Below, piece by piece: positions 8,859 through 40,116 of a DNA stretch of 64,000 nt. Origin of the DNA: Okeania sp. KiyG1 (GTDB taxonomy: Bacteria; Cyanobacteriota; Cyanobacteriia; Cyanobacteriales; Microcoleaceae); contig NZ_BLZO01000086.1 of the NCBI RefSeq assembly GCF_014132355.1, positions 26,402 through 90,401 on the forward strand, given 5' to 3'. Under the pieces are notes generated by a model. It worked only from the letters and a program-made list of their open reading frames with translations. It was not told the DNA's origin and did no database searches. Numbering within the stretch: the first letter of the stretch is position 1; each line of letters opens with the position of its first letter. The position numbers and the translations under genes are program-made.

Positions 8859-9035
8859 CAGTTATCAGTTATCAGTTATCAGTTATCAGGAAGTAGTGTA
8901 GGTTGGGTTAAGCGCAACTCAACAACAACTGCGGTAACAGTTAACAGTTATCAGTTATCAGGAAGTAGTGTAGGTTGGGTTAAGCGCAAACGCAACCCAA
9001 CAACAACTGCGGTAACAGTTAACAGTTATCAGTTA
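8859..9035. repeat. Imperfect tandem repeats of a cagttatc-containing unit
   Basis: A unit containing taacagttaacagttatc, then aggaagtagtgtaggttggg and cccaacaacaactgcgg recurs about every 80 bp directly after nifJ; a further copy lies after 9390. The last copy is split by the family C element. No ORF. Confidence 0.75.
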
Positions 9036-9389
9036 TATCATGTCCGGATAATTAGTGATGAAAAAACTTTCTCCTTGTCTTGTTCTTTCTTCCCTCCTGA
9101 ATTCTGTTTGCGGAGCATTCCGTAGGAAATTCTGAATTATGACTCCTGAGTAGTTTATTTATAGAACCCATTTGATTACTATATAATTATGGTATTCAAG
9201 TCTTTTCGTACATCAATGAGTGAGGAAAAATCATCAGCAAGGAGTGTTGAATTTTTTGTATTATTTCTCCCCGCATCTTCCTTCTTCCCTCTTACCTCCT
9301 GTCTCCTGTCTCCTGACTCCTAGCTAAAAAAACTTAATATTTATGAAGATACGGTTAGGGGTTCTATAAGTATTCAACCGGACATGATA
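9036..9389. repeat. Miniature element, family C, with TTA target duplication
   Basis: 354 bp between inverted ends tatcatgtccgg and ccggacatgata, flanked by TTA on both sides. It is inserted into the cagttatc repeat: removing it and one TTA rejoins the repeat unit. The interior holds multiple ctcctgtctcc-type repeats and an SDR (tttgcggagcattccgtagg), but no ORF. Confidence 0.8.
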
Positions 9390-9535
9390 TTATCAGTTAT
9401 CAGGAAGTAGTGTAGGTTGGGTTAAACGCAAGCGCAACCCAACAACAACTGTTGCATATTTGCGCATTTGCACATATTACTTTTGACTTACAACATTCCA
9501 ACCTACATCTCAATAAAATTCATATTACTTTTGAC

Positions 9536-22093: not shown

Positions 22094-22218
22094 TTTAGAG
22101 AGCGATCGCCAAGTATTTCTTAGCCTTTCTCTATTGAGAAAAACTTAAATAGCTATCATTTTAATGGTAGGATGTTTCAGTTCAGATACTAGATATTTAG
22201 ATAGTAATTGATGTTTGA

Positions 22219-22390
22219 TATCATGTCCGGTAGCATCGGTCTTGTATAACAAAGGTAAGGAAGAAGGAAGAGGGAAGAAGGAAGAGGGAAGAGGGAAGAG
22301 GTCCGAAGGCTACCCTCGCAAGAAAAAAACCATTATTTCCTGTAGATATTCACCCTTGGGTTTACACTAACGATATAAACGGACATGATA
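22219..22390. repeat. Miniature element, family C, with TGA target duplication
   Basis: 172 bp, ends tatcatgtccgg and ggacatgata, flanked by tga on both sides. It is inserted at the very 3' end of the decayed transposase that follows. Nearly the same element lies inverted at 56360-56545. Confidence 0.8.
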
Positions 22391-23223
22391 TGAGTTGATA
22401 AATAGTTTTTCCCAAAATTTCAGCTACTTTTTTCAAATGATTCCAGACCAACATAGAGCAAGCTTTTATGTTTTTTTGAATTTTTGCCAGACGACATTGA
22501 CACAATTCTATTCCTGTTAACTGCTTGATTCTGGCGTGAAACTCTTCGATTTTCCATCAAGGAAAGCGACTCGAATTCTACATCATCTGTAGAAGATTTA
22601 CTTAAGTCATTAGTAACAATATATTCCGTTCTATTGGCAGAAATAGTAGCCCAGAATAGCTTGATTTTTTTATCTCTTGGAAAACCTCTAATTTTTATTA
22701 TTTTACCTGATATTCTTTCTGATTCATTCCAGCTTAATTTAGCAATACTTTTATATTTTTCTACACCACCAGTGTCATCCACGGGCGCGATTTATTTTTA
22801 AGGGGCAATAATAAATTTTTCCTAAGTTATCTATAAAAGCCATTAATCTTTGCCTTGCATACCAACTATCCATCAATACAGTTTGAAATGGTAATTTCTT
22901 CTCATTTACCACATTCAATATCATTTCTTCAACATAGTCAAACTCAAGTTTTTTTGTCACTATCTGGATCATAAATACGATAATCTAGTATCCGCGCATT
23001 GCTCGGTTTGGGGATTAAAATAGATACAATTAACTACTCCTATTCCTCGAATTACTTGATGTTCATTACCGCTATATTGTCGTCGCACAAGTGCCTCTTT
23101 TCCTCTTGAAAAGCTGACTGCTGAATGCTGAGTGCTGAGTGCTACTTCAACTACCAACTGTTTTTGAGCGCACCCTGGATGTTGTGCCGCAACTGCGATA
23201 TAATTGTAGGTTAGGCGTAACAA
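22391..23223 (-). pseudogene. Decayed IS4/IS701-like DDE transposase
   Basis: At least three frames on the minus strand rebuild one transposase C-terminal two-thirds: RQYSGNEHQVIRGIGVVNCI, then RILDYRIYDPDSDK, FQTVLMDSWYARQRLMAF with the second catalytic Asp, KIYYCPLKINR, and KIEEFHARIKQLTGIELCQC holding the catalytic Glu. Frames change in an A7 run near 22960 and near 22780 and 22570. Repeats (gcactcagcattcagc-like) lie in the 5' part and a family C element touches the 3' end. It cannot make an active enzyme. It borders a gene of foreign base composition. Confidence 0.8.
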
Positions 23224-28750: not shown

Positions 28751-29230
28751 CTAATTATCGCGATCGCGTACCTGCTTTAGCAACTCTACCACATCCTTAT
28801 GACCTTCCGAATTTGCCCAAACCAAAGCCGTCCATTTATTGTTATCTTTAGCCTTGATATCTGCTCCCCGGTCTAACAAAATTTGCACGACATCAGTATG
28901 ACCACTACCAGCAGCAGTCATCAGCGCAGTCAAGCCAAAATTAGTAGTAGCATTGACATCAGCGCCAGCATCCAACAATAGTTCTAAAATTTCCCGATCG
29001 CCACTACCAGCAGCACCCATCAAAGGTACCCAACCATCATTATCATTGTTATTGACATCAGCGCCAGCAGCCAATAATTTTTTAACTATCTCTATATGGC
29101 CAGCTTCCACAGCAGCAATTAAAGAAGTGGAACCTTCCGAGTCTTTAGCATCGATCTCTGTACCTTCACTCAGCAAAGTTTCGACTTGAGAAATATCTCC
29201 AGTTTTAACCACATCAATTAATTCTGTCAT
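28751..29230 (-). CDS. Ankyrin-repeat protein
   Basis: 159 residues made almost wholly of ankyrin repeats: about four full units, e.g. STSLIAAVEAGHIEIVKKLL, VPLMGAAGSGDREILELLLD, TALMTAAGSGHTDVVQILLD and a final TALVWANSEGHKDVVELLKQ. There is no signal peptide or catalytic domain. Ankyrin proteins bind other proteins; the partner is unknown. aggag lies nine bases upstream of the ATG. A 200-bp tandem duplication starts about 50 bases upstream, so it may affect the promoter region. Confidence 0.93.
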   Translation of the reverse strand: MTELIDVVKTGDISQVETLLSEGTEIDAKDSEGSTSLIAAVEAGHIEIVKKLLAAGADVNNNDNDGWVPLMGAAGSGDREILELLLDAGADVNATTNFGLTALMTAAGSGHTDVVQILLDRGADIKAKDNNKWTALVWANSEGHKDVVELLKQVRDRDN

Positions 29231-31477: not shown

Positions 31478-31560
31478 CTCCCAGGAGGGGAATAATATCA
31501 AATCCGGTTCAACAGTTATAGAATGGTTAAGTCTTTAGAAGTCAGCAATTTTGCAATTCA

Positions 31561-31708
31561 TATCATGTCCGGTAGCATCGGTATTGTATAGAGAAGGTAA
31601 GGAAGACCGAAGTTGGAAGAAGGAAGAAGCTTTAAGAGAAGGAAAAACCTTATATGGCGCTAGATATTTCCCCAACTTTATACACAAACGATACCAACGG
31701 ACATGATA
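31561..31708. repeat. Miniature element, family C, with TCA target duplication
   Basis: 148 bp, ends tatcatgtccgg and cggacatgata, flanked by tca on both sides. A single unpaired family C end (tatcaaatccggttcaac) lies just upstream at about 31498. Confidence 0.75.
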
Positions 31709-31889
31709 TCAGGATAAGAAAGAATTAGAAAGATGAGCGTAGTTATAGCAATTGGAGAATTTTTTTTATTCCAATTAAGTAGATTTGATCTAATTGATAA
31801 TTTATGGATAATAATTGATTTTATTTTTGATTTTTGGAGATGTCTATTAGTGGTAGTTAGACATTTTATGGTCGAAAAATACCTGAAAT

Positions 31890-34136
31890 TCAGTATCCAA
31901 GTTTATCCTCTAATTCTTCAATTTTATCCTCCACTTTTTTTCTTTCTCTTTCTTGCTTTTCAATTGTTTTTTCTAATTCAAATTTTTGAGCAGTATGAGA
32001 TGTAATTACTAAATCTTCTCGGAGAGTAGCTATCTTTTCACTATATACGTCATATTGCTTTTGAAGACTATCTAGTTCCTTTTGTAGACGTTGATTTTTC
32101 TGTGCTTTTATAGACTCTTGACTTGGTAATTTAGCCTTTATTTTCTGAGGAGTTTCGATGTCGAAAATATCTAACCAGTCTTCTGTAGTTACAGAATTTT
32201 CAATTGCTTCAACAGCAAGAGGATCGATTATATTCTCAACAAGTAAACGTTTTTCAATCAATTTCTTCTTAATCCTTTCCTCGATGGTATCCTTCATCCA
32301 AAAACTATAAACTGTTAAGCTTTTTGTTTGTCCAATTCTATGAGCTCTATCTTCAGCATTTTGCATCTTTGCTGGATTCCAGAGATGATCGAAGTGGATT
32401 ACATAAGAAGCTTCTGTCAAAGTTAAACCAAAGCCTACAGATTGAATAGTGGCAAGAAAAACATTTATTTCTGGCTTGCTGCGAAAATCACTAATTATTT
32501 GATTTCGGTTTTCCTCAGATATTCCACCCTTGTACAAAACAAACCTAATTTTTTTCTCAGTTAACAATTTTGCAAGTTTATCAACTCCTTCGAGAACATA
32601 CTGAGAAAATATGATAACTTTCTGGTTATTCGCTACTATTATGCCGAGATATTCAAGCAATCTATCTGTCTTCGGACTGGTGTATTTTTCCTTGGCAAAG
32701 TTACAAATTTGCTTCAATTTGTTGAGGAGGGCAAATATATGAGTTTTTTTAACTTCACTTTGATTACTAATAATAGTTTGAATCTTTTGGCGGCCAGCAT
32801 TTAGAGTTTCATCATAAACCTTTTGTTGATTTTCATCTAACTCTAACCAATCTTCTTGGCAAATTTTTTCAGGCAAATCTTTTAAAACATCTTGCTTTAA
32901 TCTACGCAGTGTATATGGTTCTATCGTACTTCTAATTTCTTCATTTGAGTAATTATTTTCTGTCTTAAATAAATCGGGATTAATAAATGAAAAAAGTGCT
33001 TTAACATCCTCAATACTATTTTCAATTGGTGTACCAGTTAACGCCCATCTGTATTTAGAATTTAACTTGCGGACTGCCTTAGAACGACCAATATTTCTAT
33101 TTTTTATATTTTGAGCTTCATCTAAGATAATACAATCAAATTTATTCAAATCAACTAATACATTTTCTGATAAATCATTACGGAGAGTATCATAGGTTGT
33201 AATATATATATGAGCTGGTATTTCCCATAATTTACGGCGCTTTCTACTACCTCCTCTAACAATTATTACATAAAGTTCTGGTGTCCAAAGATAACAATGA
33301 CCGCTCCATCCTTCTGGCTTTTCAGTTTCAATAGTTAGTGCGACACTACCAATTACTGCTGGAGGACAAACTATCAAAGCAGATTTAATATTTCCTTGTC
33401 TAAAAAGAAAACGTATTGCATTTACTGTTTGGACAGTTTTACCTGTACCCATTTCGTCTGCTAGTAAAGCTGAATTTTTTTTGATTAACCACAATATTCC
33501 TTGTTGCTGATAACCTCTTAAAGGTTGATATAAATCAAACTCATCTGAAAAATCAAATGATAAAGGTGGTTGTAATAAAGGTTTTAATAAATCCCAGTAA
33601 TCTACTTGGTTAGTTAAATAATTAGCTTTCTGAGCTTGCTCGATCAAAAGTTTTTTTTCTTCATTTCCAAGTCCAGATAAGTTTTTTCTAATTTGTTGAT
33701 TTTCATCTTCAAAAACTTTCCCATCAACTTTTTTTACTTTAAGCAGCTCAAGTAGGTTATCTGAAATATGTGTCTGCGGAAATTGAAAATTATATTTAAG
33801 GACTTTAGGCTGAACAATTAATTTTATTAGGTTGCCGCTAAGGTTTTTATTCGTATGAAAAATATCGGTGTAATCAAAATTTGTAGGTTGTGGAATAAGG
33901 AACAGAATTTCAGAAATTTTAAAGTTTTTAGGATTCGGAATTGGCTCATATATTTTTAGTATATTTGGAACAACAAACAAAAGGTTATTAGAAACTCGGA
34001 CTTTTGAAATAGTGAAACATAAATTATTTGAAATTAGTGGAATAGGTATCTCAAAATATATGCGAAAGCAAGCTGGTTTTCTAACTCCAGAAATTTGCCT
34101 GGTTATCTGTTTAGCAAAATAACGTATCACCCCCAT
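31890..34136 (-). CDS. SNF2/RapA-family helicase with C-terminal coiled-coil module
   Basis: 748 residues. After a ~190-residue N-terminal region of unknown fold comes a SNF2 ATPase: Walker A ALLADEMGTGKTVQTV near residue 230, DEAQN box in CIILDEAQNIKNR near 338, and WALTGTPIENSIEDVKALF. The helicase C lobe has VIIFSQYVLEGVDKLAKLL, FLATIQSVGFGLTLTEASYV and the arginine finger region EDRAHRIGQTKSLTVYSF. The last ~65 residues are a coiled coil (LREDLVITSHTAQKFELEK) matching the C terminus of the caspase gene upstream. SNF2 proteins remodel or translocate on nucleic acid, and several anti-phage systems use them. The ATG lies five bases after the stop of the 181-residue gene, so the two are one operon. 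The N-terminal region is likely the system-specific part. Confidence 0.9.
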   Translation of the reverse strand: MGVIRYFAKQITRQISGVRKPACFRIYFEIPIPLISNNLCFTISKVRVSNNLLFVVPNILKIYEPIPNPKNFKISEILFLIPQPTNFDYTDIFHTNKNLSGNLIKLIVQPKVLKYNFQFPQTHISDNLLELLKVKKVDGKVFEDENQQIRKNLSGLGNEEKKLLIEQAQKANYLTNQVDYWDLLKPLLQPPLSFDFSDEFDLYQPLRGYQQQGILWLIKKNSALLADEMGTGKTVQTVNAIRFLFRQGNIKSALIVCPPAVIGSVALTIETEKPEGWSGHCYLWTPELYVIIVRGGSRKRRKLWEIPAHIYITTYDTLRNDLSENVLVDLNKFDCIILDEAQNIKNRNIGRSKAVRKLNSKYRWALTGTPIENSIEDVKALFSFINPDLFKTENNYSNEEIRSTIEPYTLRRLKQDVLKDLPEKICQEDWLELDENQQKVYDETLNAGRQKIQTIISNQSEVKKTHIFALLNKLKQICNFAKEKYTSPKTDRLLEYLGIIVANNQKVIIFSQYVLEGVDKLAKLLTEKKIRFVLYKGGISEENRNQIISDFRSKPEINVFLATIQSVGFGLTLTEASYVIHFDHLWNPAKMQNAEDRAHRIGQTKSLTVYSFWMKDTIEERIKKKLIEKRLLVENIIDPLAVEAIENSVTTEDWLDIFDIETPQKIKAKLPSQESIKAQKNQRLQKELDSLQKQYDVYSEKIATLREDLVITSHTAQKFELEKTIEKQERERKKVEDKIEELEDKLGY

Positions 34137-34141
34137 TGATA

Positions 34142-34687
34142 TTATTCTACTCCTTTATCGTTCTGCTCATGCACTTGTTGACAAGCTAACTGACTACGAT
34201 CAAATGGTTCTAGTATATTTCTTCGATAATATATTGATTCTAATTGCTTTGCTATACTTTCTAGTTCTGTACTAAAGTTATCTGAAGTCGTTAAAATCAG
34301 AGGAGGATAATTTGAATTTATAGAATTTAATTGAACCGTGGAAGTTTTGAGACCATATTGTGGTTCGTCTTCCCTAATAACTAAAATAGTAGGTATCTCC
34401 TGTCTAGTATTAATTTCCAGTAATAGTGGTTCTTGTACTAGGATGAGCTGGCTTTTTGTCTCAGTTGCAGTTAACAAAGGAGCTGCTATTAGTTCTACAA
34501 AAATATGCTCTTTCAGCAGTTCACCGTACAAAGTTTCTTGAAAATTTGTAGGACGAATTGGTTCAGTGACTCGAAATTCTAGTGGCTTAGTTTCGTAATC
34601 TGTAACAAGTATAGAACCTCTAATCACATTTCCGTCTTCAAAATCAAAACAAGAAATAAAAGCTATTTTGATATCGTTAATATTCAT
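34142..34687 (-). CDS. Unknown 181-residue protein between caspase and SNF2 helicase
   Basis: I do not recognise a named family. The protein begins MNINDIKIAFISCFDFEDGN, followed by RGSILVTDYETKPLEFRVTE and LYGELLKEHIFVELIAAPLL, a regular alpha/beta pattern that looks conserved rather than random. The C-terminal third is helical (ELESIAKQLESIYYRRNILE). No membrane segment or catalytic motif is visible. Its stop is five bases before the helicase start, so it is probably a subunit or sensor of the same system. The spacer to the caspase gene is filled by a repeat; without it the genes would lie about 130 bases apart. Confidence 0.75.
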   Translation of the reverse strand: MNINDIKIAFISCFDFEDGNVIRGSILVTDYETKPLEFRVTEPIRPTNFQETLYGELLKEHIFVELIAAPLLTATETKSQLILVQEPLLLEINTRQEIPTILVIREDEPQYGLKTSTVQLNSINSNYPPLILTTSDNFSTELESIAKQLESIYYRRNILEPFDRSQLACQQVHEQNDKGVE

Positions 34688-34795
34688 TAGTTTCAGAAAA
34701 GAAATAAAAATAAAATTGTTTGACTTTAAGCTTTCAGTACAACCAATATAATTATTTGCGATTTTAGTTGATTTGTCAATTATTTTTACCGAAAA

Positions 34796-34990
34796 ATTGT
34801 GGTTTAAAGCCTCCCCTTTTAAGGGGATAAAAAGCGGTCTCCGGATGGCGTTTGCTATCGCAAAGCTGCGCTAACAGCGGAGCGGCTCTGATAAGAGCGG
34901 TCTCCTCGCCATATCCAATCGACCAAGAGAAGAAAAATTTTCATTATTAGTCAATCCTCTCCTTGAAAAGAAGAGGTAATTATTCATTAT
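34796..34990. repeat. Family E hairpin repeat inside the caspase-helicase cassette
   Basis: ttaccgaaaaattgtggttt, aagcctcccc, then atccaatcgaccaagagaag and tcctctccttgaaaagaaga. Two SDR-like stems (gctgcgctaacagcggagcg) lie in the middle. It accounts for most of the spacer between two genes of the cassette. Confidence 0.7.
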
Positions 34991-35015
34991 TAATTGTTGA
35001 ACCATAATATTAGTT

Positions 35016-36222
35016 TTATTCAAGAATAAATTGTTCAATAGCAGAAATTTCATCCTCCAATTCAGCAATTTTAGCCTCTTCTTCCAAAAGCTGTTTTTCT
35101 AATTGAAACTTAACTGCTGTTGCACTTTCAATAGCTAGGTCTGCTCGCATTCGTTTTGCTTTTTCACTGCGTAAGTTGTAGTCTGATTCTAGGGAATCTC
35201 GTTTCTGCTCCATTCGTCGTCGTTTTCCAGATGTTAAATTAGTTGTTGTACCAATAGATTCAATAAAAGGTAACTCTCCTGTTGTAAACTTACTACCGCC
35301 TGCATAGTAACAGATAGGAAAGTTATCGCCTAGTTCTAAAACCTTATTTACGAAGGGGTGCTGAGAATTATTTGTTCGTTTAGGAACTTGGTCAAATAGG
35401 TAAATCAAGGTATCAAGGATACGAGCATAACCATCCTGATTAACAGATGCTTTACCTTGCATTCCCTCTAGTAAACAAGCAGTAAAGATACTGTAAGGAT
35501 TACCAGTATACGATAATTCATCTTCCCTTGAAGAAGCAACCACTACTCGACCACTACCTGATTTCAAAATATTCATCAGGTCAGGTGGAACAGGTGACTT
35601 AACAAAACTTTTCTCTATATCCTTCAGTTGGGGTAGACCTCCAGCATGACAGCAATCTAAGAAAACCACTAACTTATATCATGTCCGGTTGAACAGTTAT
35701 AAATAAATGACGGAGTCCTCAGGAGTCAACCCACCCCTAACCCTCCCAGGAGGGGAAGTCAGGAGTCAGGAGGAAATAAAGAAGAAGAGAAGGAGAAAGT
35801 TTTTTTATCACTAATTATCCGGACATGATATTACGAGCATTTATAGCTTCTATCTTTTCAGTGAACTCTTTGCCTGAAATTGCTGTATCCTCAAGATTAT
35901 TCATCTTAAAGCCATAAGGAACTAAAAAATACTTTTCCCCATCTGGACTATTAATTTTTACTCCATGACCAGAATAATAGACAATTACCGTAGCTTCAGG
36001 ATTGTGACTCACCTGTTCAATTAATGAGTCAAATGCAGCAAGAATCTTTAAACGAGTGGCTGAAGTTTCTGTGAGTAATACTACTTGTTCTTTTGAGTAA
36101 GCTGCTTTACCAGGATAAATCAATATATTATGTAGAGCAGTAGCATCTTGAACAGTAACAGGTAAATCAGCACCGATGCCAATTAGTAATGCGTAGCCAT
36201 TAGAAAAGGTTTGATTAGTCAT
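35016..36222 (-). pseudogene. Caspase-family (C14) protease split by a miniature element
   Basis: Two minus-strand frames, 36222-35815 and 35669-35016, form one caspase-like peptidase of about 349 residues. The 5' part has NGYALLIGIGADLPV, QVVLLTETSATRLKIL and the catalytic His in VIVYYSGHG. The 3' part has the catalytic Cys in VVFLDCCHAGG, VVVASSREDELSY and FTACLLEGMQG. Between them lies a 154-bp family C element with TTA on both sides; removing the element and one TTA gives INARKLVVFLDCCHAGG in frame. As it stands neither piece holds both catalytic residues. The C-terminal ~60 residues (MRADLAIESATAVKFQLEK) match the helicase tail. Prokaryotic caspases commonly act as effectors in conflict or cell-death systems. 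Confidence 0.92.
35677..35830. repeat. Miniature element, family C, inserted in the caspase gene
   Basis: 154 bp, ends tatcatgtccgg and ccggacatgata, TTA duplicated at 35674-35676 and 35831-35833. The interior holds ggagtcaacccacccctaac and ggagtcagg repeats and gaagaagagaaggagaaag. No ORF. Confidence 0.9.
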
Positions 36223-37748: not shown

Positions 37749-40116
37749 TTGAATCAAAGGAAAATTAATTCATTGTTTCTCCTTAAAAGGAGAGATATTT
37801 TACCCTAATTATTCGGTAAAAATCAAAAATTAAATCAATTATTATCCAGAAATTATCAATTATTCTTCCCTGTTCCCTGTTCCCTTTTTCCTGTTCTTTA
37901 ATCAAAGGAAAATTAATTCATTGTTTCTCCTTGAAAGGAGAGGCATTTTACCCTAATTATTCGGTAAAAATCAAAAATTAAATCAATTATTATCCAGAAA
38001 TTATCAATTATTCTTCCCTGTTCCCTGTTCCCTTTTTCCTGTTCTTTAATCAAAGGAAAATTAATTCATTGTTTCTCCTTGAAAGGAGAGGCATTTTACC
38101 CTAATTATTCGGTAAAAATCAAAAATTAAATCAATGATTATCCAGAAATTATCAATTATTCTTCCCTGTTCTCTGTGCCCTTTTTCCTGTTCTTTAATCA
38201 AAGGAAAATTAATTCATTGTTTCTCCTTGAAAGGAGAGGCATTTTACCCTAATTATTCGGTAAAAATCAAAAATTAAATCAATGATTATCCAGAAATTAT
38301 CAATTATTCTTCCCTGTTCTCTGTGCCCTTTTTCCTGTTCTTTAATCAAAGGAAAATTAATTCATTGTTTCTCCTTGAAAGGAGAGGCATTTTACCCTAA
38401 TTATTCGGTAAAAATCAAAAATTAAATCAATGATTATCCAGAAATTATCAATTATTCTTCCCTGTTCTCTGTGCCCTTTTTCCTGTTCTTTAATCAAAGG
38501 AAAATTAATTCATTGTTTCTCCTTGAAAGGAGAGGCATTTTACCCTAATTATTCGGTAAAAATCAAAAATTAAATCAATGATTATCCAGAAATTATCAAT
38601 TATTCTTCCCTGTTCTCTGTGCCCTTTTTCCTGTTCTTTAATCAAAGGAAAATTAATTCATTGTTTCTCCTTGAAAGGAGAGGCATTTTACCCTAATTAT
38701 TCGGTAAAAATCAAAAATTAAATCAATGATTATCCAGAAATTATCAATTATTCTTCCCTGTTCTCTGTGCCCTTTTTCCTGTTCTTTAATCAAAGGAAAA
38801 TTAATTCATTGTTTCTCCTTGAAAGGAGAGGCATTTTACCCTAATTATTCGGTAAAAATCAAAAATTAAATCAATGATTATCCAGAAATTATCAATTATT
38901 CTTCCCTGTTCTCTGTGCCCTTTTTCCTGTTCTTTAATCAAAGGAAAATTAATTCATTGTTTCTCCTTGAAAGGAGAGGCATTTTACCCTAATTATTCGG
39001 TAAAAATCAAAAATTAAATCAATGATTATCCAGAAATTATCAATTATTCTTCCCTGTTCTCTGTGCCCTTTTTCCTGTTCTTTAATCAAAGGAAAATTAA
39101 TTCATTGTTTCTCCTTGAAAGGAGAGGCATTTTACCCTAATTATTCGGTAAAAATCAAAAATTAAATCAATGATTATCCAGAAATTATCAATTATTCTTC
39201 CCTGTTCTCTGTGCCCTTTTTCCTGTTCTTTAATCAAAGGAAAATTAATTCATTGTTTCTCCTTGAAAGGAGAGGCATTTTACCCTAATTATTCGGTAAA
39301 AATCAAAAATTAAATCAATGATTATCCAGAAATTATCAATTATTCTTCCCTGTTCTCTGTGCCCTTTTTCCTGTTCTTTAATCAAAGGAAAATTAATTCA
39401 TTGTTTCTCCTTGAAAGGAGAGGCATTTTACCCTAATTATTCGGTAAAAATCAAAAATTAAATCAATGATTATCCAGAAATTATCAATTATTCTTCCCTG
39501 TTCTCTGTGCCCTTTTTCCTGTTCTTTAATCAAAGGAAAATTAATTCATTGTTTCTCCTTGAAAGGAGAGGCATTTTACCCTAATTATTCGGTAAAAATC
39601 AAAAATTAAATCAATGATTATCCAGAAATTATCAATTATTCTTCCCTGTTCTCTGTGCCCTTTTTCCTGTTCTTTAATCAAAGGAAAATTAATTCATTGT
39701 TTCTCCTTGAAAGGAGAGGTATTTTACCCTAATTATTCGGTAAAAATCAAAAATTAAATCAATTATTATCCAGAAATTATCAATTATTCTTCCCTGTTCC
39801 CTGTTCCCTTTTTCCTGTTCTTTAATCAAAGGAAAATTAATTCATTGTTTCTCCTTGAAAGGAGAGGTATTTTACCCTAATTATTCGGTAAAAATCAAAA
39901 ATTAAATCAATTATTATCCAGAAATTATCAATTATTCTTCCCTGTTCTCTGTGCCCTTTTTCCTGTTCTTTAATCAAAGGAAAATTAATTCATTGTTTCT
40001 CCTTGAAAGGAGAGGTATTTTACCCTAATTATTCGGTAAAAATCAAAAATTAAATCAATTATTATCCAGAAATTATCAATTATTCTTCCCTGTTCTCTGT
40101 GCCCTTTTTCCTCTTT
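37749..40116. repeat. Tandem array of sixteen 148-bp units
   Basis: Units start every 148 bp from 37749 (the first is diverged) to 39969 and read tttaatcaaaggaaaattaa, ctccttgaaaggagaggcat, tattcggtaaaaatc and ttccctgttctctgtgccc. Eleven inner units (38045-39672) share the same variants (aatGatta, ttctctgtgccc); the outer two on the left and three on the right keep older variants (aatTatta, with ttccctgttccc or ggTatttt). No ORF. The ctccttgaaaggag hairpin in each unit could form a stem in RNA. Confidence 0.93.

What the first reader, a model, noticed from the sequence alone, without database searches (positions are those of the whole stretch)
31890..36222. Caspase / unknown / SNF2-helicase cassette with a shared C-terminal coiled-coil module
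Seen: three minus-strand genes in order caspase, 181-aa unknown, SNF2 helicase; the last two are five bases apart and the spacer before them is mostly a repeat. The helicase tail (LREDLVITSHTAQKFELEK) and caspase tail (MRADLAIESATAVKFQLEK) match at 12 of 19 positions, and upstream DSL...Y...SEK residues align too. Known: shared adaptor ends couple effectors and sensors in bacterial conflict systems, and SNF2 helicases occur in anti-phage systems. Inference: the helicase senses or remodels nucleic acid and activates the caspase, with the 181-aa protein as third subunit.
Basis: partly seen in the sequence, partly recalled or inferred. Interest (0 to 1): 0.87.

Follow-up and report, generated by a model that had tools for sequence, protein, structure and literature searches.

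The report
SNF2 motor pair with swappable effectors
A cyanobacterial gene cluster joins a DNA-motor protein and an unnamed partner protein, a pair found together in many bacteria, to a caspase-like protease through a known adaptor tail; related pairs carry other likely effectors in the same place, which suggests an interchangeable defence device, although the caspase gene in this genome is broken by a small mobile element.

Summary
The genes and shared tails are real, but the caspase gene is cut in two by a repeat (35676-35831) between its histidine and cysteine motifs. The tail is an EAD9-type adaptor: a profile of 18 tails from other genomes (found with the window tails) scores the caspase frame 8.8e-25 and the helicase frame 3.8e-19, next 0.33. 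The genome has only these two copies at E 0.001. The 181-aa protein belongs to a widespread unnamed family with an Endonuclease-V-like predicted fold, probably without EndoV catalysis. Of 118 related loci, 73 have an SNF2 helicase downstream on the same strand; none showed EAD9 or a near relative of this caspase. So the conserved unit is the pair; the caspase link is known from one genus. Relatives carry other modules on the helicase C-terminus: phosphorylase (Nostocaceae), Mrr nuclease (Acidobacteria, Chloroflexota), an unknown extension (Microcoleus), or none (Planctomycetes). Best reading: a nucleic-acid-sensing pair with interchangeable effectors, here wired to a caspase, now decaying. Function is inferred. 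The adaptor principle is published (Kaur 2020); an SNF2/EndoV-fold core was not found in my paper searches.

The parts
31890..34136 (-). SNF2-family helicase, 748 aa (motor about residues 208-601, window 32334-33515)
   Evidence: SNF2-rel_dom 4.9e-46 and Helicase_C 3.9e-19
31899..32120 (-). EAD9-type C-terminal tail of the helicase
   Evidence: profile of 18 tails from other genomes E 3.8e-19; coordinates; Pfam EAD9 E 0.06, below cut-off
34142..34687 (-). 181-aa protein of an unnamed family with an Endonuclease-V/RNase-H-like predicted fold
34688..35015 (.). spacer rich in dispersed repeats
35016..35669 (-). C-terminal part of the caspase-like gene: Cys motif DCCHAGG (about 35637-35657) and tail
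   Evidence: Peptidase_C14 positions 121-223, E 0.0019, below cut-off
35025..35243 (-). EAD9-type C-terminal tail of the caspase-like protein
   Evidence: profile E 8.8e-25; coordinates; Pfam EAD9 E 0.0047, below cut-off; predicted two-helix hairpin, pLDDT 96
35676..35831 (.). MITE-like repeat interrupting the caspase-like gene
   Evidence: inverted ends; 53 matches in own genome, a lower bound
35815..36222 (-). N-terminal part of the caspase-like gene with SGHG motif; its last codons lie in the repeat
   Evidence: Peptidase_C14 positions 2-105, E 1.2e-08

Best explanation
The cluster is a genus-specific version of a widespread two-gene module. Shown: a small protein with an EndoV/RNase-H-like predicted fold is encoded directly upstream of an SNF2 helicase in several phyla, and the helicase C-terminus varies (nothing, Mrr nuclease, nucleoside phosphorylase, unknown extension, EAD9). 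Inferred: the small protein and the motor together recognise or travel on foreign or altered nucleic acid, and that state triggers whatever is attached to the C-terminus. In this genus the attachment is EAD9, which by the published EAD principle would bring in a caspase-like protease bearing the same EAD9, encoded next door, to kill or arrest the cell. Shown: in this genome the caspase gene is interrupted by a multi-copy repeat, and one congener keeps only the helicase and part of the caspase gene and another a 72-base trace, so the system is probably inactive or decaying here.
For: Pair conserved: of 118 loci, 73 have the helicase downstream on the same strand (its frame opens at most 323 bases after the small gene's stop), 19 had under 1200 bases downstream, 25 lack it with more, 1 is a chimeric remnant. 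Module exchange: PNP_UDP_1 on L133 (3.2e-17), same extension by alignment in L170 and L173 and by reading in L233; Mrr_cat on L116 (2.2e-26), L081 (3.1e-08), L083 (4.1e-05). The five cyanobacterial helicases in the tree group together (97/81) with three different C-termini, window plus Microcoleus 100/98. EAD9 identity; the tail sits on CHAT, TIR, trypsin, iSTAND, caspase-FGE and other proteins elsewhere. Own genome has two EAD9 copies at E 0.001. REase, PNPase, caspase and EADs are listed together as variable effector-type modules of bacterial TRADD-N proteins (PMC8195603, passage). Rare and patchy: with the five-row profile only the own genome of 389 in the order, and 6 of 217 in one family.
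Against: No functional data. The planctomycete helicases measured have no C-terminal extension, and that phylum gave many of the loci, which fits housekeeping as well. 25 loci have the small protein without the helicase. The two EAD9 tails are not each other's closest relatives (caspase-L031 177, helicase-L033 140, helicase-caspase 131). The 18 tails were first found with the window tails, so that test is not fully independent, and neither tail reaches the Pfam EAD9 cut-off. The caspase link is seen in one genus only, and the caspase gene is broken in both genomes that keep part of it (G000, G507). The EndoV likeness is of fold only: hhalign probability 16%.
Confidence: 0.5

Rival explanations
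1. The pair is a housekeeping DNA-repair, remodelling or transcription module; effector-like C-termini were added secondarily in a few lineages.
For: EndoV-like fold; plain helicases in Planctomycetes, about 9-26 residues after the motor in the closed planctomycete frames; same place beside an alaS gene (named by reading) in four Nostocaceae; small protein alone in 25 of 118 loci.
Against: Patchy presence in cyanobacteria, gene decay in the genus, and three different C-termini within one five-row group.
Confidence: 0.33
2. The caspase is only a neighbour; the helicase EAD9 serves or served another EAD9 partner.
For: Tails not mutually closest; repeats separate the genes; G507 keeps the helicase and has a separate trypsin-like gene (named by reading) with an EAD9 tail next to another EAD9 frame.
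Against: Own genome has no other EAD9 at E 0.001 (assembly 92% complete); adjacency on the same strand.
Confidence: 0.3
3. The two caspase frames are still made as two polypeptides and act together.
For: Both frames are open and match the two halves of the caspase profile.
Against: The first possible start of the C-terminal frame lies seven bases from the repeat edge and the N-terminal frame ends inside the repeat; the repeat is a multi-copy element.
Confidence: 0.05

Closest known systems
EAD-coupled conflict systems (Kaur et al. 2020, PMC7159879; section 30 read, other passages by find)
   Same: Same adaptor EAD9 on two adjacent genes, one with a peptidase domain
   Different: Core is an SNF2 helicase with an EndoV-fold partner, not VMAP, iSTAND, Ubl or GAP1; the two tails are not the closest pair. 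The paper does name an SWI2/SNF2 helicase as an effector-position domain of vWA proteins, a different arrangement
Zorya ZorD, DISARM DrmD, Dpd DpdE (SNF2-type helicases of anti-phage systems)
   Same: SNF2 motor; PADLOC describes ZorD as SWI2/SNF2 helicase with Mrr-like nuclease, as in the Mrr-bearing relatives here
   Different: Scores far below the NCBIfam cut-offs; different upstream partner. Only the cluster proteins were scanned, not the wider window
Endonuclease V, Archaeoglobus protein of unknown function 2qh9, and PIWI domains
   Same: Predicted fold of the 181-aa protein
   Different: No Pfam Endonuclease_5 match among 81 members; profile-profile match weak (16%); acidic position not conserved

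Membership tests
EAD-coupled conflict system (Kaur et al. 2020) | Small all-helical EAD at a protein terminus | tested here: met
   C-terminal, E 8.8e-25 and 3.8e-19; two-helix hairpin for the caspase tail. The Pfam EAD9 cut-off of 25 bits is reached neither by these (17.1 and 13.6 bits) nor by the 5 of 6 other tailed proteins scanned that matched EAD9 at all (16.9-23.6 bits; the sixth had no match)
EAD-coupled conflict system (Kaur et al. 2020) | Second copy on an adjacent gene with an effector or signalling domain | tested here: met
   Caspase-like gene with EAD9 tail, but interrupted
EAD-coupled conflict system (Kaur et al. 2020) | One copy fused to a recognised core component (VMAP, iSTAND, Ubl, GAP1) | tested here: not met
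   Only two EAD9 copies found in the genome, on the helicase and the caspase
EAD-coupled conflict system (Kaur et al. 2020) | Adjacent EAD copies closest to each other (given as a tendency) | tested here: not met
   Pair scores
Zorya type I (ZorD) | ZorD equivalog score | tested here: not met
   176.9 bits against cut-off 1500
DISARM (DrmD) | DrmD equivalog score | tested here: not met
   83.9 bits against 610, and 61 against 950
Dpd (DpdE) | DpdE equivalog score | tested here: not met
   40.1 bits against 500
Endonuclease V family | EndoV fold | tested here: met
Endonuclease V family | Sequence match to Endonuclease_5 | tested here: not met
   No such match in 81 of 81 members; hhalign probability 16%, E 0.0016
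Endonuclease V family | Conserved catalytic carboxylates | tested here: inconclusive
   The position facing the EndoV DGQG aspartate in the weak alignment is D in 26 and E in 14 of 81; no residue-level structural alignment was available. That this aspartate is catalytic is recalled
Caspase (Peptidase_C14) | His and Cys motifs in one intact frame | tested here: not met
   SGHG and DCCHAGG are on two frames; that these are the catalytic motifs is recalled

The most novel reading that the evidence does not exclude
A previously unnamed family of bacterial immune sensors: an EndoV/PIWI-like-fold adaptor plus an SNF2 translocase that plugs into exchangeable killers (Mrr nuclease, nucleoside phosphorylase, or a caspase through a death-domain-like EAD9 adaptor).
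Probability: 0.4. Interest if true: 0.8.

Novelty: new variant of a known kind. Interest (0 to 1): 0.6.

Why it matters
It gives a conserved, testable two-gene core (73 loci in hand) for a possible defence system; the small protein has no family in PADLOC-DB 2.0.0, NCBIfam 20.0 or the Pfam copy used (isolated weak matches aside). It explains an unnamed protein family by fold, and would extend the EAD adaptor principle to nucleic-acid motors, a parallel to helicase-sensor and caspase wiring in animal immunity (parallel drawn from general knowledge).

Tried and rejected
Rejected: a generic coiled coil as explanation of the tails. Rejected: a conserved three-gene cassette. Not filed as Zorya, DISARM or Dpd.

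Led nowhere: single-sequence search of the 181-aa protein in the order (1 of 291 genomes, the own), genome contigs by peptides, plasmids. All 118 stretches then held a tblastn match to the 181-aa protein, worst E 1.9e-07. Helicase search at E 1e-60 found only itself in 195 genomes. Solved-structure search by profile gave nothing convincing (2 sequences, best E 0.82). Microcoleus extension: one weak plasmid match to a COR-domain protein, E 3e-05 over 62% of the query. Paper searches for an SNF2 plus EndoV, SNF2 plus caspase, or SNF2 plus phosphorylase system gave no description that I saw. PMC12839542 and PMC10853773 were seen as passages only, PMC7159879 as section 30 and passages, PMC8195603 as passages, the others as search listings; the library holds open-licence papers only.

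Rows dropped: the helicase tree used 63 of 74 loci with a helicase hit, plus the window; 9 were left out for incomplete coverage and 2 for a stop. The structure alignment A4 has the window and 80 relatives: 76 of the 107 members listed, plus L170, L173, L055 and L057. C-terminal lengths were measured for L059-L138 only, not for L139-L176.
Full report
Observation. The helicase is 748 aa with an SNF2 motor; the 181-aa gene ends five bases before it. The tails match at 12 of 19 positions as stated, and align over 69 columns with score 131, against a maximum of 88 in 3000 heptad-preserving shuffles. The caspase, however, is two frames split by a 156-bp repeat with inverted ends that has 53 matches in the genome, fragments included, a lower bound. 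The repeat lies between the SGHG and DCCHAGG motifs.

The tail. Pfam gives EAD9 weakly for both (caspase E 0.0047, helicase 0.06, below cut-off). A search of 195 genomes of the order with the two tails found 20 places in 9 genomes at E 1e-06, the own two included. The proteins there are of many kinds. I scanned six of them against Pfam: TIR, two CHAT, iSTAND and a caspase-FGE protein match EAD9 weakly (16.9-23.6 bits, cut-off 25), a trypsin protein does not; the others (phosphorylase, STAND-TPR, NACHT-HEAT and so on) I named by reading. None of the 18 outside the own genome is an SNF2 helicase by reading. A profile of 18 tails without the window finds, among 179 window frames, the caspase frame (8.8e-25) and the helicase frame (3.8e-19), then nothing below 0.33. 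These 18 were first found with the window tails, so the test is not fully independent. The caspase tail is predicted as a two-helix hairpin, helices 5-38 and 42-72, with the best-conserved stretch around the turn. With a 16-row profile at E 0.001 the own genome has two copies, G507 three, four other congeners none. EADs are proposed to couple effectors and signalling parts to a core by homotypic contact, with EAD9 named among those that mainly recruit signalling components (PMC7159879, section 30). The two window tails are not each other's best match, against the tendency that paper gives for adjacent copies.

The pair. Of 118 loci, 73 have the helicase downstream on the same strand, its frame opening at most 323 bases after the small gene's stop; the gene ends overlap by four bases in 11 of 51 such loci. 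25 lack it, 19 are too short to tell, 1 (Nostoc mirabile) is a chimeric remnant. No other neighbour comes close: by a crude clustering the small protein was in 90 loci, the helicase in 59, the next family in 22. No EAD9 at E 10 and no caspase relative beyond a 16-residue match of E 0.62 was found. In cyanobacteria the pair is rare: with a five-row profile only the own genome of 389 in the order, and 6 of 217 in one family.

C-terminal exchange. The closed planctomycete helicase frames end about 9-26 residues after the motor. By Pfam, L116 has an Mrr nuclease (2.2e-26), L081 a cut-short one (3.1e-08), L083 a weak one (4.1e-05); L061 and L136 have extensions without a match; L096, L124 and L065 have no added domain. 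L133 has PNP_UDP_1 (3.2e-17), L170 and L173 align with it, L233 reads the same; these four also share a small downstream gene and sit beside an alaS gene by reading. L113 (Microcoleus) has an extension of about 216 residues without a Pfam match. In the tree the window groups with L113 (100/98) and these with the three phosphorylase forms (97/81), apart from the other rows; many long branches make other parts unsure, and the root is by midpoint.

Decay in the genus. The cluster lies between a creatininase-like gene and an lpxB-like gene (named by reading). G507 keeps the helicase (97% DNA identity, 13 bases missing near its start, crude pN/pS 0.34 from 26 silent and 34 other changes) but has lost the 181-aa gene and most of the caspase gene, which there runs into a TnpB-like remnant (by reading); G514 keeps a 72-base trace; G535 and G523 have both flanks and no more than short repeats of the cluster; G250 has only the creatininase side in the stretch taken.

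Reading. The conserved unit is motor plus small EndoV-fold protein; the C-terminus is a slot. That pattern, with a nuclease, a phosphorylase and an adaptor to a caspase in the slot, resembles conflict systems whose variable domain lists include the same domains (PMC8195603 passage). I therefore favour a sensor-effector device, at 0.5, over a housekeeping pair. Sensing, activation and killing are inference.

Noticed in passing
37752-40112: Tandem array of 16 copies of a 148-bp unit, 99% matches, just beyond the creatininase-like gene.
   Followed up: no
9035-9390, 22218-22391, 31560-31709: Further pairs of the same repeat ends as in the caspase gene; 12 end matches in the window with up to one mismatch against 0.08 expected.
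   Followed up: partly
L133, L170, L173, L233, downstream of the helicase: A conserved 184-196 aa protein with hydrophobic stretches follows the phosphorylase-bearing helicase in four Nostocaceae; no Pfam match for the L170 copy.
   Followed up: partly
L167:2602-3153: Nostoc mirabile has an in-frame chimera of the 181-aa protein start and a helicase piece near an alaS fragment, a deletion remnant by reading.
   Followed up: no
L055:8887-9438: A 181-aa family member directly after a sigma-factor-like gene (by reading), without helicase; L086 also has a sigma-like gene nearby.
   Followed up: no
28751-29230: Ankyrin-repeat-like protein (by reading) near the cluster.
   Followed up: no
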